NCBI GenBank assembly: GCA_026981635.1 | Contig: JALSIF010000235.1 | Location: forward strand, 1 to 13,195 | Origin: a bacterium | GTDB taxonomy: Bacteria; 4484-113; JALSIF01 | Direction of reading: 5' to 3' | DNA length: 13,195 bases | Shown here: positions 354-12,979 of the stretch, piece by piece | How positions within the stretch are numbered: position 1 is the stretch's first letter | Layout of the letters: each line of letters starts with the position of its first letter | Notes under the pieces: generated by a model | Database searches by the model: none | What the model was told of the DNA's origin: nothing | What the model saw: only the letters and a program-made list of their open reading frames with translations | Made by a program: the position numbers and the translations under genes

Positions 354-404
354 CCTGAAGTCTGCCTGGAGGCGTAAAAAGCCGAGCTGGGGAGAGAGAA
401 AGTG

Positions 405-1553
405 ATGGGACTTCCGACCTACGAGGACGAAAAGGCGGTTGAGCTGATTGACGCCCGGGTAATTGAGCTGCTTAAGAAGATGCTTGAGGGGGAGGTCGGG
501 CGCCTTGACCCCTACTTTGATCCCAACGCCAAGTATGGCTATTCTTACCCGGACGCCAACGTCGTCCTCAAGCGCCTGCACGGCGAGGAGGTGGAGGTGC
601 TGGAGCTTCTTCATAAGCTTGGCTATCTGGTGGGCACCTTCCACGACAAGGTCTATCTCTGTCCCTTCTGCCAGAGTCACCATCTCCACCTGAGGCTCTC
701 CTGTCCCGAGTGCAACTCCACCGACATCCGTCAGGCCTCCATGCTCCACCACTTCAGCTGTGGGCACGTGGACCTGGAGGAGCGTTTCCTGCAGCGGGGA
801 AGGCTCATCTGCCCCAAGTGCTCGCAGGTGCTCAGGCACATCGGGGTGGACTACGAGCGCCCCAGCCGGGTCTGGCACTGCAACCAGTGTGGCTACATCT
901 TCCAGCACCCGGTGGAGAGCTTCCACTGCCACCGCTGCGGGCGTCAGTCCAGTAAGGAGCAGGTGGTGGAGAAGCGGATAATGAGTTTTACCGTCAGCCC
1001 CGAGGCGGCGGTGGCCATAGAGGATGGCAAGCTCTATGACTTCAAGTACTACCAGGTGGTGAGCGACGGGCTCACCCAGCTGGTCAACATGAGCTATTTC
1101 CGCGAGCAGGGGCTCAAGGAGGTGGCCCGCTCGGTCCGCTATGGAAACCAGGTTACCTTCGTGCTTATCCGCATCGTCAACTTCCCCGAGCTGGTCTCCG
1201 CCTACGGCCAGACGGAGGCGGAGCGGCTGTTTCGGGACTTTGCCCAGATCACCAACAACACCCTAAGAAGCTGCGACCTGGTGGCCCGCTATGACGATGT
1301 GAGCCTGATCATCCAGCTTCCCGAGACCGGGCCGGACAGCGCCATCTTTGCCATTAACCGGATCAGCTACAACCTGACCCGCTCGGACATCTGGCTGGAG
1401 TTCACCGACCCGCGGCCGGTTATCAAGGTGAGCATGGTGAGCATTCCAGAGGACGCCAAGGACTATGACGAGCTACTTAAGCTTCTGGAGGAACGCATTG
1501 AGACCAGTGGGCTAGTGGTGGGGATGACCGAACAGTCTGGTGCAGGCAGGTGA
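405..1553 (+). CDS. Regulator with TackOD1-like zinc-ribbon region and degenerate GGDEF domain
   Basis: This 382-residue soluble protein has three parts. Residues 1-80 are charged and look helical. Residues 86-178 hold eleven cysteines, mostly in CxxC pairs (C86/C89, C100/C103, C136/C139, C159/C162, C175/C178), plus a HHFSCGH segment. The LRHIGVDYERP stretch and this cysteine layout match my memory of TackOD1, a zinc-ribbon output domain described in thaumarchaeal signalling proteins. Residues about 245-370 follow the GGDEF fold, but the metal-binding DxD is replaced (LIRIVNF) and the signature is YDDVS, so cyclase activity is not expected. An RSCD motif at 288-291 sits in the I-site register, suggesting c-di-GMP binding. 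ATG at 405 follows GGGGAG (389-394); GTG at 402 is an alternative. The stop overlaps the glycosyltransferase start by four bases (GTGA), implying translational coupling. Likely role: control of the synthase. Confidence 0.75.
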   Translation: MGLPTYEDEKAVELIDARVIELLKKMLEGEVGRLDPYFDPNAKYGYSYPDANVVLKRLHGEEVEVLELLHKLGYLVGTFHDKVYLCPFCQSHHLHLRLSCPECNSTDIRQASMLHHFSCGHVDLEERFLQRGRLICPKCSQVLRHIGVDYERPSRVWHCNQCGYIFQHPVESFHCHRCGRQSSKEQVVEKRIMSFTVSPEAAVAIEDGKLYDFKYYQVVSDGLTQLVNMSYFREQGLKEVARSVRYGNQVTFVLIRIVNFPELVSAYGQTEAERLFRDFAQITNNTLRSCDLVARYDDVSLIIQLPETGPDSAIFAINRISYNLTRSDIWLEFTDPRPVIKVSMVSIPEDAKDYDELLKLLEERIETSGLVVGMTEQSGAGR

Positions 1554-2869
1554 TTGATCTATTTATAGATTTTGTCAAGTCAGTAGTTGACTTTCTGGTC
1601 CTGGGGGTGGAGCAGTTTTACGCCCTGGACTGGCAAACCCTGCTGGTCCTATTTTGGTTCACCTTTATCTTTGACCTGCCACGCTATCTCATCCCCGACC
1701 TACTGGCCTGGATGTGGGACATACTCTGGGGGGTGGAGAATCGGCTGAGACCGCCCAGGGAGAGAGACCCGGTTCTGGAGCGGAAACCACTAGTGTCGGT
1801 GATTGTGCCGGCGCTGAATGCAGAAGCTACCATCGCCTCCACCATAGAGACCATTCTGGAAACGGACTGGCCCAACAAGGAGGTCATCGTGGTGGACGAT
1901 GGATCGGACGACCGTACCTTCGCCATCGCAAGCGACTATGCCCGCCGAGACCGGAGGGTGAAGGTGTTTCGCAAGAAGTACCGCGGGGGTAAGGCCAGCG
2001 CCCTGAACCTTGGCTTTCAGGCCTCCCGCGGCGAGTTCATCATCGCGGTGGACAGCGACACTTCCTTTGAGCGCGAATCCATAACCAACCTGATTCGCCG
2101 CTTTGAGGATCCCCGAGTGGGGGCGGTAAGCGGAAATCTTAGGGTCAAAAACCAGGACAAATCCCTCTGCACCCGTCTGCAGGCCTGCGAGTATTTACAG
2201 ACGATTTCCATCGCACGAATTGTTCTTTCCTCCTTAAATCTGCTGATGGTGGTATGCGGTGCTTTTGGGGCCTTTCGGCGGGATGTTCTAGTGCAGACTG
2301 GGGGCTGGGACCCGGGGATCGGCGATGACTCAAACATGACGGTAAAGGCGAGGAAGCTCCGTCCACGGGTGGCCTTTGCCCCCGATGCGCGGGCCTATAC
2401 CTCGGTGCCGGAGACCTGGACCAAGCTCTGGGTGCAGCGCAAGCGGTGGGACAAAAACTTCGTCAGAAACCGCCTCAAGAAGCACGCCAACATCCTTAAC
2501 CCAACCCGCTTCCATCCCTCTAATCTTGGATCGGTATCCATTGAGTTTTTTTATCGGGTTCTCTTGCTCGTAGCCTTCTACGCCTACTTGGTCTATCTAT
2601 TCCTGTTCTTCCCCCACATGCTTCCCCTAGTGGTCGTAGCCACTTTTGTCATCTATGGACTAGCTAACTATGTGAGCCTGTTTGCGGCGGTGATGGTGAG
2701 CAAGCAGTACGACCAGCTTGAGCTGGTGCTTTATGCGCCCCTCATGCTCTACTACCGTCTCTTCCTCAGGGCGGTGAGAACGGTGGCCTACATTGAGGAG
2801 TTCCTGCGGCTAAACTACCGCGATCCCTTCTATCCCACCGAGGTCTGGGAGAACATCCCCCAGTGGTAG
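1550..2869 (+). CDS. Processive family 2 glycosyltransferase (polysaccharide synthase), membrane-bound
   Basis: This 439-residue protein is predicted to polymerise a sugar nucleotide into an extracellular chain and move it across the inner membrane, as BcsA-, PgaC- and hyaluronan synthase-type enzymes do. Residues 1-62 carry one or two membrane segments. The GT-A catalytic domain (about 80-310) shows VSVIVPALN, DDGSDD (116-121), the metal-binding DSD (168-170), a GDD (258-260) where the catalytic-base ED/TED motif normally sits, and QRKRW (296-300), the Q-x-x-R-W signature of processive enzymes. Residues about 329-410 contain further hydrophobic segments that could form the channel. There is no PilZ domain, so any c-di-GMP control must come from another protein, plausibly the gene just upstream. 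GTG start at 1550 overlaps that gene's stop. The polymer cannot be predicted; PgaC-like and cellulose-like readings are both open. Confidence 0.9.
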   Translation: MIDLFIDFVKSVVDFLVLGVEQFYALDWQTLLVLFWFTFIFDLPRYLIPDLLAWMWDILWGVENRLRPPRERDPVLERKPLVSVIVPALNAEATIASTIETILETDWPNKEVIVVDDGSDDRTFAIASDYARRDRRVKVFRKKYRGGKASALNLGFQASRGEFIIAVDSDTSFERESITNLIRRFEDPRVGAVSGNLRVKNQDKSLCTRLQACEYLQTISIARIVLSSLNLLMVVCGAFGAFRRDVLVQTGGWDPGIGDDSNMTVKARKLRPRVAFAPDARAYTSVPETWTKLWVQRKRWDKNFVRNRLKKHANILNPTRFHPSNLGSVSIEFFYRVLLLVAFYAYLVYLFLFFPHMLPLVVVATFVIYGLANYVSLFAAVMVSKQYDQLELVLYAPLMLYYRLFLRAVRTVAYIEEFLRLNYRDPFYPTEVWENIPQW

Positions 2870-2889
2870 TGTGGGGTAGTCCGCCCAGG

Positions 2890-3783
2890 ATGATCCCGCG
2901 GATAAGCCGGCAGTGGGCAACAGCAATCCTGGTGCTCTTTTTCTGGGGGAGCCTTTCCTCTCCTTCCCTCGCCCAACCGGAAGAGGTGGAGGTGGCCGCC
3001 TGGGCCTGGCTAAGCTCAAGGAACGGGGAGAGGAGCCGAGCGCTCAAAGAGGATGACCTTAGGGTGGCAAGTGTGCTCGGGGTGAGGAGAGTGTGGCTTT
3101 CGGTGGGGGCAGGCTTTGCCGGCCAGGAATCACCTGATCCCCGCTTTGGGCGCCTCTTTCGTCGCGCCCTGGAGATCTTTCCCCGGGTGGGGATGCTGAT
3201 GGGGGAGGCGGGCTGGATCGGCCGGCCCCAGCTGGGGCGGGAGAGGGTGAGGCGGGCGGTGGTCTGGTTCTGGGCGAACTTTCCCAGCCACCGCCTGGAA
3301 ATAAACCTTGATGTTGAGCCCCAGCAGCTTGGGGAGTGGCAGCAGGAGAGGGGTAGGGAGGAGCTGGTGGGGGGGATGGTGGAGGCGGTCTGCGGGGTGG
3401 CCAGGGAGCTCAAGCTGCTTGAGCCCGATGCCACCCTCATCGTCTCCCTAAACCTATCCCTGATGGAGCGCTACCGGCCCGGCCTGGGAGAAGAGCTTGC
3501 CCACTGCGGGGTGGACGGGATCGCTCTGATGGACTACCGGCGGGAGCTGGGGGAGATGCTTAAGGTGGTGGATAAGGCTGACTGTGCTAAGTTTTTACCC
3601 TACTGGTTGGGGGTAAACTTGAGGCCAGAGGCTCCAGCCAGGTTTGGGGGGAGAGTAGGGAAGCGGGCGCTGGTTGAGCTCTCCGCTTTGCTGGCGAAGG
3701 GGGCCGGCAGCTGCTTTCGGGGGGTTGCTATCCACAGCCTAAACTATCTTTCCCCCGAGCAGGGGGAGAGGGGCGGCAAGTAG
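2890..3783 (+). CDS. Secreted glycosidase-like protein, probable TIM barrel (GH18-like by motif)
   Basis: From ATG 2890 the protein has 297 residues and starts with a clean signal peptide: basic n-region (MIPRISRQW), hydrophobic core, and likely cleavage after SLA (26-28). Earlier in-frame GTGs at 2863 and 2869 would overlap the synthase stop but only add a poor n-terminal extension; no start has a strong Shine-Dalgarno. The mature part alternates short beta-like and helical segments. LEINLDVEP (D141, E143) recalls the DxxDxDxE strand of GH18-like barrels, and IALMDYR (D215, Y216) recalls the MxYD strand; IHSLNYL (H282) may close the pocket. Family assignment is inference from these motifs. 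In an exopolysaccharide operon it would be a periplasmic or exported enzyme that trims, releases or binds the polymer, comparable in position to PslG or BcsZ. It could also be a catalytically inactive binding protein. Confidence 0.7.
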   Translation: MIPRISRQWATAILVLFFWGSLSSPSLAQPEEVEVAAWAWLSSRNGERSRALKEDDLRVASVLGVRRVWLSVGAGFAGQESPDPRFGRLFRRALEIFPRVGMLMGEAGWIGRPQLGRERVRRAVVWFWANFPSHRLEINLDVEPQQLGEWQQERGREELVGGMVEAVCGVARELKLLEPDATLIVSLNLSLMERYRPGLGEELAHCGVDGIALMDYRRELGEMLKVVDKADCAKFLPYWLGVNLRPEAPARFGGRVGKRALVELSALLAKGAGSCFRGVAIHSLNYLSPEQGERGGK

Positions 3784-3803: not shown

Positions 3804-5177
3804 ATGATGGGTAATCTGCCGTGGGCGGCACCCGCGATGCGTATCGCACTTGGCCTGGTGGTGGCTGGGCTGATCGTCTCTGGCGGGGGGAGGGCCTGGG
3901 CAGACAGCCCAGTCAAGGTCACCCTTCCCGAGCTGATTGAGCTTGCCATGGGCAGCTCATCCCGCATAAAGACCGACTACTACAACCAGCTGGTCTCCTA
4001 CTACGATCAGCTTGATCCGCGTTTCTCGCCGGAGCTGGATCTTTTGATCACCCAGAGCTTCCGCTCCCGTGCCCGGCGGCTTGATGTGGTCAACTCACCA
4101 CCCGGTTTTCCCAACCAGTTCATCATCGGGCGCAAGTCAAACCTTTCGGTGGCCTTTGAGGCGGAGGTTCCACTAGCCCTCTCGGGGATTGAGCGGCTCA
4201 GTAAGCGGGCGGCCCGCTGGGAGTATGCCCAGGTCCATTTCCTCTATCTTCGCAACCGGGAAGAGGTGGCGGCTGAGGTCACCGATCTCTTCTGGCGGGT
4301 GGTAATCGCCAAGCACCGGGACGGCCTCTATGCCGAGCTGATTGATCTTTATGAGCAGACCCTGAACAGATACCGGCAGCGCTACGAGGGGGGGGAGGAG
4401 TTTGGCTACAAGGTGAGGGAGGCAGAATTTTTGCTGGCTGAGGCCCGCCACCAGCGGAGGGTAAACCAGCTTGAGATGGAGCGGGATGTCTTTGCCCTGA
4501 GCCAGCTTACCGGGACTAGCCTGAGGGCGGAGTGGTTTCCCTATGAGCTTCCCCCCCTGCCGGAGAGGGTTGAGGAGGTGGACTTCTCCACCCTTAAGCG
4601 ACGGGTGCTTGAGAAACTATCCCGCATCGCCCCCCGGCTGGAGGAGGAGCTTACCAGCGAGGAGCTGGGTGGGGGCCTGCGCCTCTCCTGGCTCACCCCT
4701 TCCCTCACCCTGACTGGCCGGCTGCAGAACCGGGGAGACTTTGCCCGCCAGGAAAAGGGGAAGGTGATCGGGCAAATAAACCTCACCGTCCACTTCAACC
4801 TGAGGGAAAAGCGGGACAAGAGTGCCGATCGGCAGCGGGCCCGCATCAAGCAGCGGCAGGCCAACCTGATCCGCAACCGACAGCTTTTGATAGGTGACCT
4901 GGCCGATGCCTGGGTGCAGCTTGCTGAGGACATGGACTGGCTAAGGCGGGTCTATCGGGCCCAGAAGGCCTGGCTGGAGGAGGAGCTCCGGGTGGCCCGG
5001 CTCCGCTACGAGGGTGGACTGGGCACCTTTGAGAACTACAAACTGAAACAGGAGCAGCTCATCGCCCTGGAGCTTGAGCGGCTGGACCGGATCAGCCGCG
5101 TGCAGGTGAGCAGGGTGGGGCTGGAGTACTGGCTGGAGATGCAGTTCTCCAGCGGGGAGGTGAAGGAAAGTGGTTGA
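3804..5177 (+). CDS. TolC-like outer-membrane efflux/export protein (OEP family)
   Basis: This 457-residue protein, within the usual TolC-family size range, begins with a signal peptide ending AWA-DS (cleavage after residue 33). It is followed by VTLPELIELAMG, the typical first helix of outer-membrane efflux proteins. The rest is two repeats of long charged helices interrupted by beta-like strands (LSVAFEAEVPL and INLTVHFNLRE). Two helices show the characteristic family pattern, RYRQRYEGGEEFGYKVREAE and ARLRYEGGLGTFENYKLKQ. The family forms trimeric channels across the outer membrane and periplasm that dock with an HlyD-type adaptor, here encoded by the next gene. AGGAGG (3786-3791) lies 12 bases before ATG 3804; a second ATG follows directly. 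The gap from the preceding gene is 20 bases, and the stop overlaps the next start by 8 bases. No inner-membrane pump is encoded nearby, so the likely cargo is the polymer from the upstream synthase. Confidence 0.88.
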   Translation: MMGNLPWAAPAMRIALGLVVAGLIVSGGGRAWADSPVKVTLPELIELAMGSSSRIKTDYYNQLVSYYDQLDPRFSPELDLLITQSFRSRARRLDVVNSPPGFPNQFIIGRKSNLSVAFEAEVPLALSGIERLSKRAARWEYAQVHFLYLRNREEVAAEVTDLFWRVVIAKHRDGLYAELIDLYEQTLNRYRQRYEGGEEFGYKVREAEFLLAEARHQRRVNQLEMERDVFALSQLTGTSLRAEWFPYELPPLPERVEEVDFSTLKRRVLEKLSRIAPRLEEELTSEELGGGLRLSWLTPSLTLTGRLQNRGDFARQEKGKVIGQINLTVHFNLREKRDKSADRQRARIKQRQANLIRNRQLLIGDLADAWVQLAEDMDWLRRVYRAQKAWLEEELRVARLRYEGGLGTFENYKLKQEQLIALELERLDRISRVQVSRVGLEYWLEMQFSSGEVKESG

Positions 5178-6243
5178 GCGCTATCCACGGCCCAGGCCGA
5201 GCCTCTGGGAGAGGCTCTGGCGAGTGGCGCAGCTTATCTTCCTGCTGGCCATGCTTGCCCTCATCGTCACCCTATTAATTAGCGGATTTGTCATCCGCGA
5301 CTTTGAGAAGAAGGCCTTTGAGACGGTGGAGCCCCGCTACTACTACGGCCTGCTGGAGCAGATTGACTATGAGATCACTGCACCGGTCTCGGGCACCGTT
5401 GAGGAGGTTGGAGTGGAGGAGGGGGAGAAAGTGCTAGCCGGCATGGAGCTAATCCGGCTGGTCCCCCCACGCCGGGAGGAGACGGTGCGGCGGGGCGGGG
5501 GGGCCGGCGGCGCTGGAGGCGGGGCGGCCGCTCCCCCCAAGACCGGGCCTGGCGGCTCCAGCGCAGGAGGAGGGAGCAGATCCCTTGCCGGGCGCTACTC
5601 GGTGGAGGAGCTCAGGGAGCTTATTGTTGACACCAAGCTGAAGCTCAGGGAGGAGGAGCTTCAGGCGGAGCGCTACCGCCAGCGGGTGGAGGAGCAGAAG
5701 CGGAAGCTGGATAAACTCACCCGCCTGCTCAAGGAGGGGGCCGCCACCCAGGCAGAGGTAGAAAAGGCGCGCCAGGCGCTGGAGGAAGCTGAGTTTGACC
5801 TAAGACTTTCCGAGCTTCGCATCGCCCGGCGGGAGGTGGAGCTGGAGCGCTATGAGCGGCTGCTGAGGATAAAGCTGGGTCTATCCAGTCGGGCGGGCAG
5901 ACAGCTGCCCGATGGAAGTTACGCCATTTTCTCCCCCGTCCCCGGGCGGGTGGTCTCGGTGGAGGTGCAGCCAGGGGAGTATGTGATCCGGGGAAAGAGG
6001 CTGATTGAGCTGGTACGCTCCGACCTTTACCGCCTCTCCTTCCCGGTGAGCCAACGGATGGCCCTGTTTATCAACCCTGCCTCCAGCGTCAAGGTTGAGG
6101 TGGTCAAGGGCGAGAAGGTGGTAAGGAGCCTAACCCTGAAGATAGATCGCATGGACCGAAGCTGGATCAGCTTTCTGGTGGAGGCGGAACAAGTTGAGCC
6201 TGAGCCGGGGCTGGTCTTTCGCATGGACCTCGCCCAGTTTTAG
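5170..6243 (+). CDS. HlyD-like periplasmic adaptor (membrane-fusion protein)
   Basis: The 357-residue protein has one N-terminal membrane anchor (about 20-42) and then the adaptor layout in order. The first lipoyl half-motif is at 69-97 (APVSGTVEEVGVEEGEKV); a Gly/Ala/Pro-rich linker spans about 108-138. A long charged coiled-coil hairpin covers about 144-235 (turn near KEGAATQAEVEKA). The second lipoyl half-motif is at 254-283 (FSPVPGRVVSVEVQPGEYV), and a beta-barrel region reaches the C-terminus. Such proteins bridge the inner membrane to a TolC-like channel. GTG 5170 lies 9 bases after GGAGG (5156-5160) inside the end of the previous gene, an 8-base overlap indicating coupled translation. 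The glycine-rich linker before the coiled coil is unusual for the family. The partner is presumably the family 2 synthase, because no ABC or RND pump is present. Confidence 0.9.
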   Translation: MVERYPRPRPSLWERLWRVAQLIFLLAMLALIVTLLISGFVIRDFEKKAFETVEPRYYYGLLEQIDYEITAPVSGTVEEVGVEEGEKVLAGMELIRLVPPRREETVRRGGGAGGAGGGAAAPPKTGPGGSSAGGGSRSLAGRYSVEELRELIVDTKLKLREEELQAERYRQRVEEQKRKLDKLTRLLKEGAATQAEVEKARQALEEAEFDLRLSELRIARREVELERYERLLRIKLGLSSRAGRQLPDGSYAIFSPVPGRVVSVEVQPGEYVIRGKRLIELVRSDLYRLSFPVSQRMALFINPASSVKVEVVKGEKVVRSLTLKIDRMDRSWISFLVEAEQVEPEPGLVFRMDLAQF

Positions 6244-6311: not shown

Positions 6312-6319
6312 AGAGGTGA
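6312..6319 (+). promoter_or_regulatory. Ribosome-binding site deciding the peptidase start
   Basis: AGAGGTGA lies 5 bases before GTG 6325, a good Shine-Dalgarno distance. The longer reading from GTG 6316 would place its start codon inside this site, so the shorter start is preferred. Confidence 0.45.
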
Positions 6320-6324
6320 TCAAG

Positions 6325-7344
6325 GTGGAGTTGCTTCGGGAGCTAAGTGAGCTGCACGGTGTGCCCGGTCGGGAGGAGGAGGTAAGGGAGTTTATCCGCT
6401 CCAAGGTGGAGGGCCTGGTGGATGAGATTGAGGTGGACCCGCTGGGCAACCTCATCTGCCGCAAGCACCCATCGGGAGGAAGCGATGAGCGGGTGATGGT
6501 GGCTTGCCACATGGATGAGATCGGCTTCTATGTGCGGGCGATTGACAAGCGGGGGTTTCTTCGCCTCCATCCGGTGGGTGGGTTTGACCCCAGAAACCTT
6601 TTTGCCCGCCGGGTGGTGGTAAAGACCAGGAGTGGCAAGCTGGTGGGGACGCTAAACCCCCAGGTCCCGCCGGTTCACCTCTCCACCGAGGGCGAGCGGC
6701 GCAAGGTCCCCCAGCTCAAAGACTTTTACGTTGACCTGGGCATGAGCGCCGAGCAGGTGAGGGCGCTGGTGCAGGTGGGCGACCCGGTCACCCTGGCGCA
6801 GAGCTTTGCCCAAGTGGGGGAGCTCTGGTCGGGCAAGGCGATGGACAACCGGGCCGCTTGCTGGGTGGGCATCCGTCTGCTGGAGTCCCTTGAAGGGCTC
6901 ACCCGGGAGCTGGCGGTGGTCTTTACCACCCAAGAGGAGGTGGGCCTGAGGGGGGCGATGACCTCGGCCTTTCGGGTGGGGCCGGACATCGCCATTGCGG
7001 TGGATGTGACCCTGGCCTACGATACCCCGGGGGTGGACGAGGACGACCGCATCGCCTCCCTGGGCAAGGGGGTGTGCATCAAGATCGCCGACAGTGCCTC
7101 CATCTCCGACCGGGAGCTGGTTGACCACTTCATCCAGCTTGCCGAGCGAAACGAGATTGACTATCAGGTTGAGGTGCTGCCCCGCGGAGGGACGGATGCG
7201 GGGGCCATGCAGCGCATCCGGGGAGGTGCCAAGACCATCACCCTCTCCATCCCCACCCGCTACATCCACACGGTAGTGGAGTGCATCCACCCGGATGACC
7301 TGCGCGGCTGCCTGGCCCTGCTTAAAGCCTATTTGGAGAGTTAG
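6325..7344 (+). CDS. M42-family metallo-aminopeptidase
   Basis: With the GTG start at 6325 the protein has 339 residues, in line with the usual 330-360 for the family. It is a cytoplasmic dinuclear metal (Zn or Co) aminopeptidase, often a large tetrahedral oligomer, that removes residues from short peptides. Visible residues: ACHMDEIGF (H62 metal ligand, D64), AMDNRAACW (D174 bridging ligand), TQEEVGLRGA (E204 general base, E205 ligand), IAVDV (D227 ligand) and RYIHTVVE (H315 ligand). All five ligands and the base are present, so it should be active. The N-terminus LLRELSELHGVPGREEEVR is typical. GTG 6316 is an alternative start adding three residues. Members are often misnamed endoglucanase or cellulase; nothing here supports glycosidase activity. 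It sits alone between two operons and ends at a strong terminator, so a link to polysaccharide export is not implied. Confidence 0.93.
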   Translation: MELLRELSELHGVPGREEEVREFIRSKVEGLVDEIEVDPLGNLICRKHPSGGSDERVMVACHMDEIGFYVRAIDKRGFLRLHPVGGFDPRNLFARRVVVKTRSGKLVGTLNPQVPPVHLSTEGERRKVPQLKDFYVDLGMSAEQVRALVQVGDPVTLAQSFAQVGELWSGKAMDNRAACWVGIRLLESLEGLTRELAVVFTTQEEVGLRGAMTSAFRVGPDIAIAVDVTLAYDTPGVDEDDRIASLGKGVCIKIADSASISDRELVDHFIQLAERNEIDYQVEVLPRGGTDAGAMQRIRGGAKTITLSIPTRYIHTVVECIHPDDLRGCLALLKAYLES

Positions 7345-7436: not shown

Positions 7437-8882
7437 TCAGCTGGGCGGGCCGGTCTCCGTCTGGAACCAGAGCTCGTTGGAGATGCTTACGAAGCCCTGG
7501 GGGTTGCACTGATCGTCAAAGGAGAAGTTGGCCGGGTCGCCCTGGTAGGCAACCACCTTGAAGGAGGCGATGGAGGGGTCGGAGACGCCGTTCAGTTGGC
7601 CCGGGGTGGTGTCGTCAAAGCCGTTTCCGGTGCCCAGCTTGAAGAAGGTGGGACAGAGGTCAAAGTTGACCTCGCTGGTCACCTCGGTGCCCGGCTGCTT
7701 GTCGGAGGTGGTCCAGACGGAGAACTGGAAGGGGAAGTCGGAACCGTCGGCGGCAAAGACGTAGGCGTTGTCAAAGCTGCCCGCGGTCTCGGGGCTGCCC
7801 GGGTCCTGGGGGGAGAGGCTGGGGGATTCCAGGAAGAGGAAGAGGCTTACCGGAGCACCCAGAAGGTCCAGCACCGGACTGGCATGGCTGGGGTCGGGAG
7901 TGCCCGCTGCCATGGGTACAACCTGAATGTAGCGGTTGGCCGGGTCAAGGGCACCCATGGGAGGTGGGAAGGAGTAGGCGGCAAAACCCAGCGCATCGGC
8001 AAAGGAGTCAACCGGCAGGCTGAGGGTGTCGGTGGTGGTGGAGCTGTTTAGTGCAGGAATGGAAAAGCTGTCTACCACCGTGGTAGGTGGATCAGTGTCT
8101 CCCTGAAGGATCTGGTAGGCGTCCACAAACTGGCCGAAGTTGCTCACTACGATGGTGGCGTCATTGAAGCCGATGTCGCCACTGTTGTCGTAGTCCACAG
8201 GCGGGGGAGCCTGACCGGCTCCCAGACCGGCGGGCAGGCCGAAGTTGGAGACCAGCAGGGTCATGTCGTTGAAGCCCACGTCGTGGCTCTGGTCTCCGTC
8301 GCCCTTGAGCCGCTCAGAGAACTTCACCCTCCCTGCGCCGCTGTCAAAGACCAGGCCGTCAAACTCGCCACTATACTCCACGTTGGGAGCACCCAAGGCG
8401 CTGAAGCTCTTTACAGCACGGCGGGGCTCAAAGCGGATCCGCACCTCCACCCCGGCAGGCAGAGGATCCAGCCGGGGGCGAGCGATGCCCACCGCCGCCA
8501 CCCCGGGGACCGGTTCGGTGGCCAGCACCACCATACCCTCGGTACCACTGAGGTCAAAGACCGGCTCCATCTCGGGCACCGGCTGCTTGACTACCGCGTA
8601 GAGGTGGGTAGTGGGCTGGCGGGTGCGAAGGAGAACTTCTCCTCCCTCTTCACTTAGCTCAATCTCTGGAGGAAGACTGGAGAGGGGGTTGCCCTCCAGG
8701 TCAAAGGCCACCACCTCAAGTCCCTCTGGGGGGGCAAAAAGGATGTCCTGCAGGGTAAGACCCGAGGGGGTGGCTCCACCATTCTCACCGACCTTTCCCT
8801 CCCGGGCCGATCCGCCACAGGAGGAGACCAACAGGGCGAAACCGAAAAGAATCGCCCCCACCAAGAAAGCTCTCGTTCTCAT
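7437..8882 (-). CDS. Secreted lipoprotein with two dockerin-like EF-hand loops, function unknown
   Basis: This 481-residue protein has a lipoprotein signal peptide: MRTR, a hydrophobic core and lipobox LVSSC with Cys22 as the lipid-bearing residue. A low-complexity Gly/Glu stretch follows. Residues about 45-190 look beta-rich. Two calcium-loop motifs come next, DGDQSHDVGFND (195-206) and DYDNSGDIGFND (230-241), each followed by a helix TLLVSNFG or TIVVSNFG. They are 35 residues apart, the layout of dockerin type I or related EF-hand repeats; acidic positions 1, 3, 7 and 12 are kept. The C-terminal 220 residues have no motif I recognise; C410 and C459 could form a disulfide. The likely location is a membrane anchor facing the periplasm or outside. 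It follows the dehydrogenase operon by 72 bases but has its own TATAAT box, so a functional link to that complex is doubtful. Confidence 0.8.
   Translation of the reverse strand: MRTRAFLVGAILFGFALLVSSCGGSAREGKVGENGGATPSGLTLQDILFAPPEGLEVVAFDLEGNPLSSLPPEIELSEEGGEVLLRTRQPTTHLYAVVKQPVPEMEPVFDLSGTEGMVVLATEPVPGVAAVGIARPRLDPLPAGVEVRIRFEPRRAVKSFSALGAPNVEYSGEFDGLVFDSGAGRVKFSERLKGDGDQSHDVGFNDMTLLVSNFGLPAGLGAGQAPPPVDYDNSGDIGFNDATIVVSNFGQFVDAYQILQGDTDPPTTVVDSFSIPALNSSTTTDTLSLPVDSFADALGFAAYSFPPPMGALDPANRYIQVVPMAAGTPDPSHASPVLDLLGAPVSLFLFLESPSLSPQDPGSPETAGSFDNAYVFAADGSDFPFQFSVWTTSDKQPGTEVTSEVNFDLCPTFFKLGTGNGFDDTTPGQLNGVSDPSIASFKVVAYQGDPANFSFDDQCNPQGFVSISNELWFQTETGPPS
8133..8300 (-). repeat. Tandem dockerin-like EF-hand repeat within the lipoprotein
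   Basis: Two copies of a D-x-D-x-S-x-D-[VI]-GFND loop plus [TA]-x-[LV]-VSNFG helix are encoded at 8238-8300 and 8133-8195. Their near-identical core GFND-x-T-x-x-VSNFG points to internal duplication. Calcium binding is predicted from the loop residues. The pair marks the boundary between the beta-rich N-terminal and the uncharacterised C-terminal part. Confidence 0.7.
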
Positions 8883-8954: not shown

Positions 8955-10367
8955 CTATCTGTTTATTGCGTGGATCATCTTGCCATCCACCCCCAGGGCG
9001 GCCTCGTGGACCGCTTCGCCCAGGGTGGGGTGGATGCGCACTGCCGCCTGGAAGTCCTCACAGGAGGCGCCAAACAGCAGGGCCATGGTGGCCTCGTTGA
9101 TCAGGTCGGAGGCGTGGGGGCCGATGATGTGGACCCCCAGAAGCTCGTCGGTCTTGGCGTCGCCGATCACCTTTACGAAGCCGTCTGCCTCGCCCAGGGA
9201 GAGGGCGCGGCCGTTGGCGCCGAAGGAGAACTTGCCGGTCTTTATCTCATGGCCCTTCTCCTTGGCCTCCTCCTCGGTCATTCCCACGTAGGCGATCTCG
9301 GGGAAGGTGAAGACGGCGGCAGGGACGGTGAAGTCAAAGTGGGCCCAGTTGCCGGCAAGCTTCTCGGCTAGCTGATATCCCTCGTGGCTGGCCTTGTGGG
9401 CCAGCATGGCCCCGCCGATCACATCACCGATGGCGTAGATGTGGGGCTGGGAGGTGGTGAGGTGTTCGTCCACCACCACAAAACCCTTCTCGTCCACCTT
9501 GACCCCGGCCCGGTCTAGGGCCAGGTCCTCGGTGTTTGGCACCCGGCCCACCGCCACCAGCACCTTGTCAAAGCTTTCGCTGCCGGCAAAGCCGCCCTCG
9601 GCGGCCGGCTCCATGGTCACTTTGACACCTTTGCTGGTGGTCTTTACCTGGGTAACCTTGGTGTTGGTGCGGATCTCAATCCCTTGGCGCTTGAAGAGCT
9701 TGGCCGCCTCCTTGCGGATGTCCTGGTCAAGGGTGGCAAGGATCTCAGGGAGGAACTCCACCACCACCACCTCGGCGCCCAGGGCGTTATAGACCGAGCC
9801 CAGCTCCATGCCGATGTAGCCGCCTCCGATCACCAGCAGGCGCTGAGGAAAGTCGGTGGGGTCGATCCCCTCGTCGCTGGAGATCACCCGCTTGCCGTCA
9901 ATACCTAATCCGGGCAGGGTGCGGTAGGTGGAGCCGGTGGCAACGACGAACTTCTCCGCAGTGATCCGCTGGCTCTTCCCCTCCGGGGTGGTTATCTCCA
10001 GGGTGTGGGGGTCAACAAAGCTTGCCGCGCCAAAGATGAGGTCGGCCCCGTTCTTCTCCAGGAGAAGCTTCACCCCGCCGGTGAGGCGCTTTACGATGTT
10101 TAGCTTGTGCTGGTTTAGCTTCTTAAGGTCAACCTTGACCTCTCCCACCACGATCCCCTGCTCGGGGGCCACCTCCTTTATGTGGTGGTAGAGGTGGCTT
10201 GCGTCAAGCAGCACCTTGGAGGGGATGCAGCCCACATTGAGGCAGGTTCCGCCCCAGTACTGCTTTTCCACCACGGCGCACTTTAGGCCCAGCTGGGCGA
10301 GGCGGATGCCGCAGACATATCCTCCGGGACCGGCGCCAATCACCACCACCTGATAGTCAAATGCCAT
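8955..10367 (-). CDS. lpdA: Dihydrolipoyl dehydrogenase (E3 component of 2-oxoacid dehydrogenase)
   Basis: The 470-residue flavoprotein reoxidises the dihydrolipoyl groups on E2 and passes electrons to NAD+ (EC 1.8.1.4). Features in order: FAD-binding GAGPGG (11-16), redox disulfide in TCLNVGC (C42 and C47), NAD-binding GGGYIG (181-186), second FAD motif YAIGD (D315), and the C-terminal catalytic HPTLGE (H446, E451). Length and all key residues are standard for the family, so it should be active. ATG 10367 follows GAGGTG by 7 bases. It is the last gene of the complex operon, 65 bases after the E2 stop, and lacks a fused lipoyl domain. The same E3 may serve more than one complex or the glycine cleavage system if no other copy exists. 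Confidence 0.96.
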   Translation of the reverse strand: MAFDYQVVVIGAGPGGYVCGIRLAQLGLKCAVVEKQYWGGTCLNVGCIPSKVLLDASHLYHHIKEVAPEQGIVVGEVKVDLKKLNQHKLNIVKRLTGGVKLLLEKNGADLIFGAASFVDPHTLEITTPEGKSQRITAEKFVVATGSTYRTLPGLGIDGKRVISSDEGIDPTDFPQRLLVIGGGYIGMELGSVYNALGAEVVVVEFLPEILATLDQDIRKEAAKLFKRQGIEIRTNTKVTQVKTTSKGVKVTMEPAAEGGFAGSESFDKVLVAVGRVPNTEDLALDRAGVKVDEKGFVVVDEHLTTSQPHIYAIGDVIGGAMLAHKASHEGYQLAEKLAGNWAHFDFTVPAAVFTFPEIAYVGMTEEEAKEKGHEIKTGKFSFGANGRALSLGEADGFVKVIGDAKTDELLGVHIIGPHASDLINEATMALLFGASCEDFQAAVRIHPTLGEAVHEAALGVDGKMIHAINR

Positions 10368-10432
10368 CGGAGTTCACCTCGGTCAGATCAAGAATTCCCA
10401 CTTCCTCCGACCCTCGGTAGCCCGGTGGGCGG

Positions 10433-11914
10433 CTAGATCTGAAGCAGCATCCACTCGGGGTTCTCCAGCTGCTCCACGATGTAGGCGTTGAACTCCACCG
10501 CATAGACCCCATCAATCAGGCGGTGGTCAAAGGCCACCGTGAGGTAGACCATGTCGCGCACCACGATCTGGCCGCTCTCGTCCACCACCGGGCGCTTCTT
10601 GATGTTGTGGACGCCGAGTATTCCCACCTCGGGGTAGTTGATGACCGGGCAGCTGATCAGGGTGCCGAAGCCGCCGGCGTTGGTGATGGTGAAGGTGCCC
10701 CCTTGCAGGTCGTCCAGGGTGAGCTCGCGGTTTCTGGCCCGTTCGGCAAGCTCGGCCACCTCCTGGCTTAGCTCCACGATGGACTTGCGGTCGGCGTCCT
10801 TGATGTTGGGCACCACCAGGCCGTCGTCGGTGTTTACCGCGATGCCGATGTTGTAGTACTTCTTAAGAATTGCCTCGGAGTGGTCGTCGGTGATGGAGGC
10901 GTTGAAGTAGGGGAACTTCTTGAGGGCGGCCACCACCGCCTTGATGAAGAAGGCCATGTAGGTGAGCTTGACCCCGTAGCGGGCCTGGAACTCCTCCTTG
11001 TACTTCTCCCTAAGTGCCACCAGCTTGGTGAGGTCGGCCTCCTGGATGTCGTAGGTGTGGGCGGCGGTGTTCTTGGACTGCTGCATGCGGTCGGCGATGG
11101 TCTTTCTGATGCGGGGGAGCTTCACCCGCTCCTCAGGGCCATACTCGCCGGTGACCAGCACGCCCAGCCGCTCGGGCACCACCTGCTCCTTGGCGGGGGC
11201 GGCGGGAGCGGCGGCGGGGGTGGGGGCGCCCACCTGATACTTCTCAACCTCGCCCGCCTCAATGATGCGCTCAATGTCCACCTTACGAATGCGGCCGCCC
11301 CGGCCGGTCCCCTGGATCTTGGCCGGGTCCAGGTTGTACTGCTCAATCAGCCGGCGCACCGCGGGGCTTAGGAAGGTGGCCTTGGCCCCGTCGCCCGCAG
11401 CGGGGGCGGCCGGAGGCGGCGGAGGCGGTGGGGCCTCCTCCTTCTTCTCCTCCTCGGCAAACTTGGAGAAGTCCACCTCAATTACCTCGCCGACGGTGGT
11501 TGCGGCATACCCTCCCAGGTCCTCGTCCACCTCGCGGGGGATGCCGCCGGCGGGGGCCTCCTGCTTGGCCTCCTGATCGCCGGCGCCCGCCTCCATGTAG
11601 GAGGTGTCAATGGGAGCCGAGCTCGCCTCCGCCCCCATCTCGCCGGGCTTGATGGAGCCAGGCTCGTACTCCTCGCCCTCGCGGGCTATCACCCCGATGA
11701 TCTGCTTTACGTTGACCACCTCGCCTTCCTTGGCGAACTTCTCCACCAACACTCCTGAGGCGGGCGAGGGGACCTCCATCTCAATTTTGTCGGTCTCAAT
11801 GGTGACGATGGGCTCGTCCATCTCCACCTTGTCGCCCACCTCTTTGAACCACTTGCCGATCTCGCCCTCAACTACCGACTCGCCAAGTTCGGGCACGATG
11901 ACCTTTACAGGCAT
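10433..11914 (-). CDS. Dihydrolipoamide acyltransferase (E2 component of 2-oxoacid dehydrogenase)
   Basis: The 493-residue core subunit carries acyl groups on lipoyl-lysine and transfers them to CoA. Domains: one lipoyl domain (1-80) with the modified lysine K43 in ETDKIEME; an acidic linker (about 85-160); a Pro/Ala linker (161-178); a peripheral subunit-binding domain (181-219, with LSPAVRRLIEQYNLDPAKI and GTGRGGRI); a second Ala/Pro linker; and the catalytic domain (about 262-493) ending with DHRLIDG, where H464 and D468 are the active-site pair. SCPVINYPEVGILGVHNI is closest to branched-chain-type E2 in my reading, but pyruvate-type is not excluded. The start ATG 11914 has AAGGAG 9 bases upstream. 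The acidic, non-Pro/Ala stretch between lipoyl and binding domains is longer than usual. Confidence 0.95.
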   Translation of the reverse strand: MPVKVIVPELGESVVEGEIGKWFKEVGDKVEMDEPIVTIETDKIEMEVPSPASGVLVEKFAKEGEVVNVKQIIGVIAREGEEYEPGSIKPGEMGAEASSAPIDTSYMEAGAGDQEAKQEAPAGGIPREVDEDLGGYAATTVGEVIEVDFSKFAEEEKKEEAPPPPPPPAAPAAGDGAKATFLSPAVRRLIEQYNLDPAKIQGTGRGGRIRKVDIERIIEAGEVEKYQVGAPTPAAAPAAPAKEQVVPERLGVLVTGEYGPEERVKLPRIRKTIADRMQQSKNTAAHTYDIQEADLTKLVALREKYKEEFQARYGVKLTYMAFFIKAVVAALKKFPYFNASITDDHSEAILKKYYNIGIAVNTDDGLVVPNIKDADRKSIVELSQEVAELAERARNRELTLDDLQGGTFTITNAGGFGTLISCPVINYPEVGILGVHNIKKRPVVDESGQIVVRDMVYLTVAFDHRLIDGVYAVEFNAYIVEQLENPEWMLLQI

Positions 11915-11955
11915 GGCTCCTCACTCCTTATTTTTCAAGTCCTCGCCCCACCGCT

Positions 11956-11965
11956 CCGCCGGCGG
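11956..11965. other. GC-rich palindrome between E1-beta and E2 genes
   Basis: CCGCCGGCGG is a perfect 10-base palindrome flanked by C-rich and G-rich arms in the 78-base gap between the two genes. It could fold in the message and affect relative E1/E2 yield, but there is no T-run, so it is not an intrinsic terminator. Low support beyond the symmetry itself. Confidence 0.25.
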
Positions 11966-11992
11966 GGGGCCGTGAGCTGGCCGGTTCCTGAA

Positions 11993-12979
11993 TCAATACT
12001 CAAAGAGCTGCTTGGCCTCCTGGTAGATCCGCTCCACGCTGGGCAGGTAGAGCTGTTCCATCTTGGGGTGGAAGGGGACCGGGGTGTCGGGGGCGGCCAC
12101 CCTCACCACCGGGCCGTCCAGGTAGTCCCAGCACTCCTCCACGATGGCGGAGGCGATCTCGCCGCCGATGCCGCCGTACTTGGGCGCCTCGTGGACTACC
12201 ATAGCCTTGCCGGTCTTCTTTACCGACTCCACGATGGTCTCCATGTCCAGGGGCAGCAGGGTGCGAAGGTCCACCACCTCAACGTCGATCCCCTCCTCCC
12301 TTAGCTTCATTGCCGCCTGCATGGAGCGGTGGAACATGAGCCCAAAGGAGAAGATGGAGAGGTGCCTTCCGGGCTTCTTCACGTCGGCCTTGCCGATGGG
12401 GACCACGAAGTCATCGTCGGGCACCGGCTCCTTGATGGTCCGGTAGAGCTTCTTGTGCTCAAAGTAGAGGACAGGGTTATTGTCGCGGATGGCCGCCTTG
12501 AGCAGGCCCTTGGCGTCGTAGGGGGTGGAGGGGACCACCACCTTGAGGCCGGCCACGTGGCAGTACCAGGCCTCGTTGGACTGGGAGTGGTACATGCCGC
12601 CTCCCACGTCGCCGCCGTAGGGGCAGCGGATGGTGATGGGGACCGGCCAGGTGCCGCCGGTGCGGTAGTAGATCTTGGCCGCCTGCTGGCAGATCTGGTC
12701 GTGGGCCCCGCCGATGAAGTCGGCAAACTGGATCTCGGCGATGGGCCGCATCCCCATCAGCGCCGCCCCGGTGGCGATGCCCACGATGGCGCTCTCCGAG
12801 ATGGGGGTGTCCAGGCAGCGGTAGAAGCCGAACTCGTCCATCAGGCCCTTGGTGGCCTTGAAGACGCCGCCGTAGAGCCCCACGTCCTCGCCCAGCACGA
12901 AGACGTTCTCGTCGCGCTGCATCTCCTCGCGCTGGGCCTCAATGATGGCGTCGATGTAGGTGATCTTTCTCATCCCCAT
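11993..12979 (-). CDS. 2-oxoacid dehydrogenase E1 beta subunit (branched-chain or pyruvate type)
   Basis: The 328-residue protein pairs with E1-alpha to form the thiamine-diphosphate-dependent decarboxylase of the complex. Visible signatures: ITYIDAIIEAQREEM near the N-terminus, LGEDVGLYGGVF (29-40), TPISESAIVG with E62 that activates the cofactor, ADFIGGAHDQI (86-96), GGGMYHSQSNEAW (H131, active-site channel), PVLYFEHKKLYR (169-180), and DLRTLLPLD (237-245). The YHSQS and FEHKKLYR segments favour a branched-chain 2-oxoacid enzyme, but the group overlaps with pyruvate and acetoin dehydrogenases. ATG 12979 has AAGGAG 10 bases upstream; ATG 12973 is an alternative that drops two residues. It lies 63 bases after the E1-alpha stop. 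Confidence 0.95.
   Translation of the reverse strand: MGMRKITYIDAIIEAQREEMQRDENVFVLGEDVGLYGGVFKATKGLMDEFGFYRCLDTPISESAIVGIATGAALMGMRPIAEIQFADFIGGAHDQICQQAAKIYYRTGGTWPVPITIRCPYGGDVGGGMYHSQSNEAWYCHVAGLKVVVPSTPYDAKGLLKAAIRDNNPVLYFEHKKLYRTIKEPVPDDDFVVPIGKADVKKPGRHLSIFSFGLMFHRSMQAAMKLREEGIDVEVVDLRTLLPLDMETIVESVKKTGKAMVVHEAPKYGGIGGEIASAIVEECWDYLDGPVVRVAAPDTPVPFHPKMEQLYLPSVERIYQEAKQLFEY

What the first reader, a model, noticed from the sequence alone, without database searches (positions are those of the whole stretch)
1266..1304. Degenerate GGDEF that keeps the I-site RxxD: a candidate c-di-GMP receptor analogous to PelD
Seen: the domain reads RSCD-LVARY-DDVS, in the same register as RxxD-xxxRY-GGDEF of active cyclases such as PleD. 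The metal-binding DxD and the GGDEF signature are both lost. Known: PelD is a catalytically dead GGDEF protein that binds c-di-GMP through RxxD to activate Pel synthesis. Inference: this protein senses c-di-GMP and controls the adjacent PilZ-less synthase, with a zinc-ribbon module replacing PelD's GAF domain.
Basis: partly seen in the sequence, partly recalled or inferred. Interest (0 to 1): 0.78.

Follow-up and report, generated by a model that had tools for sequence, protein, structure and literature searches.

The report
Probable c-di-GMP switch for sugar-polymer export
The gene encodes a dead signal-making domain that has kept only the pocket for binding the bacterial messenger c-di-GMP, joined to a little-understood zinc-binding domain and encoded directly beside a sugar-polymer synthase that it probably switches on; this combination recurs in several bacterial groups and gives the zinc domain a testable role.

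Summary
ORF 402-1553 is TackOD1 (PF18551, an 11-Cys zinc domain) plus a degenerate GGDEF domain, with RSCD-LVARY-DDVS exactly at 1266-1304. Homologues strengthen the inference. In 58 nonredundant homologues the catalytic residues are gone (GG in 0/58), yet RxxD survives in 49/58. All four equivalents of the PleD/WspR inhibitory site (R246, R289, D292, R320) fall among the nine most conserved of 148 columns. In 60 of 72 loci with room downstream a PgaC-like GT2 synthase gene follows directly; HlyD and often a TolC-like gene are nearby. Best reading: a cytoplasmic, catalytically dead c-di-GMP receptor that gates this exopolysaccharide synthase. It works like PelD but is not PelD (no GAF, no membrane helices, GT2 rather than GT4). 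RxxD has been lost several times, mainly in alphaproteobacteria, where some proteins carry a receiver domain instead. Binding and synthase control remain inferences.

The parts
402..1553 (+). Receptor gene: TackOD1 + degenerate GGDEF, 383 aa (GTG 402; 382 aa from ATG 405), no transmembrane helix predicted
459..995 (+). TackOD1 zinc domain (residues 20-198): 11 Cys in five CxxC and one HxxC
   Evidence: PF18551 E 9.5e-53; cysteine positions
1062..1496 (+). Degenerate GGDEF domain (residues 221-365)
   Evidence: PF00990 E 2e-17; model matches GGDEF structures
1137..1139 (+). R246, in register with WspR R198 (secondary I-site)
   Evidence: alignment to WspR; 50/58 R, rank 3 of 148; WspR numbering from own knowledge
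1266..1277 (+). RxxD primary I-site, R289-S-C-D292
1290..1304 (+). Lost active-site signature: Y-D-D-V-S where Y-G-G-[DE]-E stands in active cyclases
1359..1361 (+). R320, in register with PleD R390 (third primary I-site residue; spacing +31)
   Evidence: 40/58 R and 7 K, rank 9 of 148; PleD numbering from own knowledge
1550..2869 (+). GT2 processive synthase, PgaC/IcaA-like, motifs DDG, DSD, GDD, QRKRW, no PilZ domain; start overlaps the receptor's stop
2863..3783 (+). Unidentified secreted-looking ORF (306 aa), in the operon by overlap with GT2; possible glycoside hydrolase (guess from LDVEP and LMDYR motifs)
   Evidence: no Pfam, NCBIfam or PDB match
3804..5177 (+). TolC-like outer membrane efflux protein
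   Evidence: PF02321 E 2e-15
5170..6243 (+). HlyD-type membrane fusion protein
   Evidence: PF13437 E 2e-13

Best explanation
A cytoplasmic c-di-GMP receptor for a GT2-dependent exopolysaccharide system. Shown: the GGDEF domain keeps its fold but not its active site; the residues of the c-di-GMP inhibitory site (R289, D292, R320, and R246 as the secondary-site arginine) are selectively conserved; the gene usually abuts or overlaps a PilZ-less GT2 synthase gene, with HlyD and often TolC-like genes. Inferred: c-di-GMP, probably as the intercalated dimer, binds R289/D292/R320 of one subunit and is clamped by R246 of another, changing the oligomer or the position of TackOD1; TackOD1 then touches the synthase and licenses polymer synthesis and export through the HlyD/TolC pair.
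For: RxxD in 49/58 nonredundant homologues, at a median pairwise C-terminal identity of about 22% in the first 35-sequence set; R and D of RxxD are the only invariant columns in a 23-sequence alignment. All four I-site equivalents rank within the top 9 of 148 columns, chance about 7e-6 if columns were equal, while the catalytic columns rank 90-144. GT2 directly downstream in 60 of 72 loci, HlyD within 6 kb in 61; TolC-like genes in related operons. GGDEF fold by structure. The same genome has a cyclase with intact GGEEF, so c-di-GMP is plausible. Precedents: PelD uses R367/D370/R402, and in B. cereus PelD R363A, D366A and R395A lose binding (PMC8461298, PMC7112168); MxdA binds c-di-GMP (PMC7666153, PMC11395469).
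Against: No binding, dimerisation or synthase control is measured. Nine of 58 homologues lack RxxD, seven of them still next to GT2. The window's nearest relatives L070 and L116 are orphan genes without a GT2 neighbour. The Asp of RxxD and the R246 position are often conserved in GGDEF domains at large (own knowledge). Intact PleD-type GGDEF proteins usually carry RxxD too (22/25 in a biased control).
Confidence: 0.74

Rival explanations
1. The I-site residues are kept for structure or dimer contacts, not for ligand binding: the domain is a passive dimerisation scaffold for TackOD1.
For: Other fold residues (F233, G269, P307, T309) are about equally conserved; the Asp of RxxD is frequent in GGDEF domains with or without I-site function (own knowledge).
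Against: R289, R320 and R246 correspond to surface arginines with a ligand role in known GGDEF structures (own knowledge); the full set R289, D292, R246 and R/K320 is kept together in 44 of 58.
Confidence: 0.14
2. It is a general adaptor that docks active diguanylate cyclases (or other partners such as CheY-like proteins) at the synthase; binding of c-di-GMP is secondary.
For: MxdA interacts with the cyclase PdgA and with CheY3 (PMC7666153, PMC11395469); some homologues carry their own receiver domain and have lost RxxD (L061, L129).
Against: Does not explain why the I-site is among the best conserved features of the domain.
Confidence: 0.08
3. It is a weak or atypical diguanylate cyclase under I-site feedback.
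For: Annotated as 'diguanylate cyclase' in public records of homologues; one AGDEF protein is known to be active (PMC3974145, abstract).
Against: GG absent in 58/58, first metal-binding Asp absent in 56/58, no conserved substitute; MxdA is reported to act on c-di-GMP levels only indirectly (PMC3691769).
Confidence: 0.03

Closest known systems
MxdA of Shewanella oneidensis (SO4180; mxdABCD operon)
   Same: Degenerate GGDEF (PMC3409153), reported c-di-GMP-binding effector, first gene before a type II glycosyltransferase (MxdB) and an efflux-type protein (MxdC) (PMC3691769, PMC7666153); same gene order as the gammaproteobacterial loci here.
PelD (Pseudomonas aeruginosa, Bacillus cereus)
   Same: Catalytically dead GGDEF binding c-di-GMP through RxxD plus a downstream Arg (R402/R395; here R320), serving a polymer system without PilZ.
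   Different: PelD has four membrane helices, a GAF domain and serves a GT4 enzyme (PelF) with PelE/PelG; here TackOD1, no membrane helix, GT2. No PelD chain was matched by sequence.
BcsE (DUF2819 domain)
   Same: Degenerate GGDEF-like fold with an I-site binding c-di-GMP in a cellulose system (PMC8461298).
   Different: Different accessory domains; accessory to the PilZ-bearing synthase BcsA (own knowledge).
TackOD1 (PF18551)
   Same: The N-terminal domain is a member; described as an archaeal response-regulator output domain also found in some bacteria (PMC5847659).
   Different: Its function was called obscure; here it is tied to GT2/HlyD operons and degenerate GGDEF domains.
PgaC/IcaA PNAG synthase
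   Same: The GT2 neighbour is of this type (TIGR03937, 181 bits).
   Different: Far below the equivalog cut-off (422 bits); PNAG synthesis uses PgaC/PgaD for c-di-GMP (PMC8461298), not a GGDEF receptor.

Membership tests
TackOD1 (PF18551) | Match over the Pfam gathering score | tested here: met
   179 bits against 32
TackOD1 (PF18551) | 11 Cys in five CxxC plus one HxxC (PMC5847659) | tested here: met
   C87, 90, 101, 104, 120, 137, 140, 160, 163, 176, 179; HFSC at 117
GGDEF domain superfamily | Sequence and fold | tested here: met
   PF00990 E 2e-17; Z 17-18.6 to GGDEF structures
Active diguanylate cyclase | GG[DE]EF and metal-binding Asp | tested here: not met
   YDDVS and RxV; GG in 0/58 homologues
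PelD | RxxD plus downstream Arg in a degenerate GGDEF | tested here: met
   R289/D292/R320
PelD | Four N-terminal membrane helices and GAF domain | tested here: not met
   no hydrophobic helix; TackOD1 and no GAF match
PelD | pel operon with GT4 PelF | tested here: not met
   neighbour is GT2 with HlyD and TolC-like genes
MxdA | Degenerate GGDEF gene directly before GT2, with efflux/HlyD gene near | tested here: met
   MxdA description from PMC3691769 and PMC3409153
MxdA | Sequence homology to SO4180, including TackOD1 | not testable with these tools
   no Shewanella chromosome could be identified; published mxd promoter primers did not match the fetched loci
c-di-GMP receptor of I-site type | Measured binding, lost on RxxD mutation | not testable with these tools
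   needs ITC or DRaCALA

The most novel reading that the evidence does not exclude
TackOD1 is the general activating partner of a widespread GT2/HlyD polymer export machine: a zinc domain that docks on the synthase and accepts interchangeable inputs, c-di-GMP through a dead GGDEF in most bacteria, phosphorylation through a receiver domain where RxxD is lost (L061, L129), or none (L071, a TackOD1-only protein abutting a GT2 gene).
Probability: 0.35. Interest if true: 0.7.

Novelty: new variant of a known kind. Interest (0 to 1): 0.52.

Why it matters
It would add a broad class of I-site c-di-GMP receptors, found in several bacterial groups, to the few known controllers of exopolysaccharide synthases, and give a first testable function to TackOD1, a zinc domain whose role has been called obscure. 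If MxdA proves to belong here, one studied Shewanella gene explains a large set of genes now annotated as hypothetical proteins or, wrongly, as diguanylate cyclases.

Tried and rejected
The MxdA membership test failed for lack of sequence: papers not held, a decaheme-cytochrome search led to a family without TackOD1, and order-level loci carried no match to the published mxd promoter primers. PelD as the family was rejected on GAF, membrane helices and glycosyltransferase type. An active cyclase was rejected on lost catalytic residues. The full-length model was too poor to use (pLDDT 52); only the GGDEF model was searched. PelD was not among the fold rows shown, which says nothing either way. 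The RxxD control set is biased towards PleD-like domains and gives no fair background rate. A literature search joining degenerate GGDEF, RxxD, exopolysaccharide, glycosyltransferase and HlyD found nothing.

Full report
What is there. The ORF at 402-1553 encodes 383 residues (382 from the ATG at 405). Residues 20-198 match TackOD1, Pfam PF18551, at E 9.5e-53, and residues 221-365 match GGDEF at E 2e-17. The eleven cysteines and the HxxC that define TackOD1 are all present; the paper that described the domain called its function obscure (PMC5847659). A model of the domain built from two sequences (pLDDT 69) matches PleD, WspR, DosC and SadC domains at Z about 17-18.6.

Is it more than chance. 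Homologues were gathered from genome samples, plasmids and one named genome contig and aligned. Among 58 proteins under 60% identity in the C-terminal part, RxxD is present in 49. Ranking 148 aligned columns by entropy, R246 is 3rd, D292 4th, R289 5th and R320 9th; the catalytic positions (DxD, Asn, Asp and the four GG[DE]E positions) rank 90th to 144th, and no sequence has GG at the signature. In a 23-sequence alignment the only invariant columns are R and D of RxxD. R320 lies 31 residues after the RxxD arginine, as R390 does after R359 in PleD, and R246 falls on WspR R198, the secondary-site arginine; these numberings are from my own knowledge, the register. So the whole two-part inhibitory site, not only RxxD, outlived the active site. 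The chance figure of 7e-6 treats columns as equal and ignores kinship, so it is a guide only.

A caution. In a small control of GGDEF proteins that resemble the window's domain, 22 of 25 with an intact signature also have RxxD. The motif is therefore probably ancestral and common in this branch; the argument rests on its retention after everything catalytic was lost.

Context. The receptor's stop overlaps the start of a GT2 gene (1550-2869) that has the processive-synthase motifs DDG, DSD, GDD and QRKRW and no PilZ domain. An unidentified secreted-looking ORF, a TolC-like gene and a HlyD-type gene follow on the same strand, the neighbours overlapping or 20 bases apart. In 72 distinct loci with room downstream, a GT2 gene follows directly in 60, and HlyD lies within 6 kb in 61; named examples are Plesiomonas, Aminobacter, Phyllobacterium, Roseibium and a Rhodobacteraceae bacterium. 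Several loci have a 700-800 residue TolC-like gene between GT2 and HlyD, or before HlyD.

Where it fails. Nine of 58 lack RxxD; a tree of TackOD1 needs about five changes. Most losses are alphaproteobacterial proteins still beside GT2; two of these are annotated as response regulators, and a receiver domain was confirmed by Pfam in L061. L071 is TackOD1 alone, abutting GT2. This parallels streptococcal PelD, which lost its GGDEF domain (PMC7112168). The window's nearest relatives L070 and L116 have no GT2 neighbour, so the receptor can also be encoded elsewhere.

How it most likely works. Inferred: c-di-GMP binds R289/D292/R320 and bridges to R246 of a second subunit; this moves or dimerises TackOD1, which engages the synthase. 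PelD gives the binding precedent (R363, D366 and R395 of B. cereus PelD are each needed; PMC7112168) and BcsE another (PMC8461298). The host can probably make the messenger: its contig C45 encodes a GGDEF protein with an intact GGEEF.

Comparison with the known. It works like PelD but is not PelD. The nearest system is probably Mxd of Shewanella: MxdA has a degenerated GGDEF (PMC3409153), binds c-di-GMP and is thought to trigger the Mxd machinery (PMC7666153, PMC11395469), with MxdB a type II glycosyltransferase and MxdC efflux-like (PMC3691769). Whether MxdA has TackOD1 could not be tested. If it has, the window protein is a new member of the MxdA family, and what is new here is the breadth of the family, the complete I-site and the link to TackOD1.

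Noticed in passing
2863-3783: Secreted-looking 306-aa ORF between GT2 and TolC-like genes, no match in Pfam, NCBIfam or PDB; LDVEP and LMDYR motifs hint at a glycoside-hydrolase-like barrel. Not seen in the other fetched loci.
   Followed up: partly
7437-8882 (- strand): 481-aa lipoprotein-like ORF with two dockerin-like repeats (GDIGFNDATIVVSNFG and HDVGFNDMTLLVSNFG); no Pfam match.
   Followed up: partly
8955-12979 (- strand): Pyruvate/2-oxoacid dehydrogenase genes: E3, lipoyl E2 and E1-beta, as read from their translations.
   Followed up: no
6316-7344: M42 aminopeptidase gene just after the operon.
   Followed up: partly
L061, L129: Alphaproteobacterial homologues annotated as response regulators, near Hpt and kinase genes, without RxxD: possible switch of input from c-di-GMP to phosphorylation.
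   Followed up: partly
window 375-404: Most homologues carry about 110 extra N-terminal residues; the window gene and its nearest relatives lack them, and an in-frame stop lies at 375 just before the start.
   Followed up: partly
L132: Haloarchaeal (Natronococcus) TackOD1 protein without RxxD, on a plasmid near a nitrous-oxide reductase gene.
   Followed up: no
L113, L130, L171, L177: Homologues whose reading frame ends or shifts within or soon after TackOD1; sequencing error or decay.
   Followed up: no
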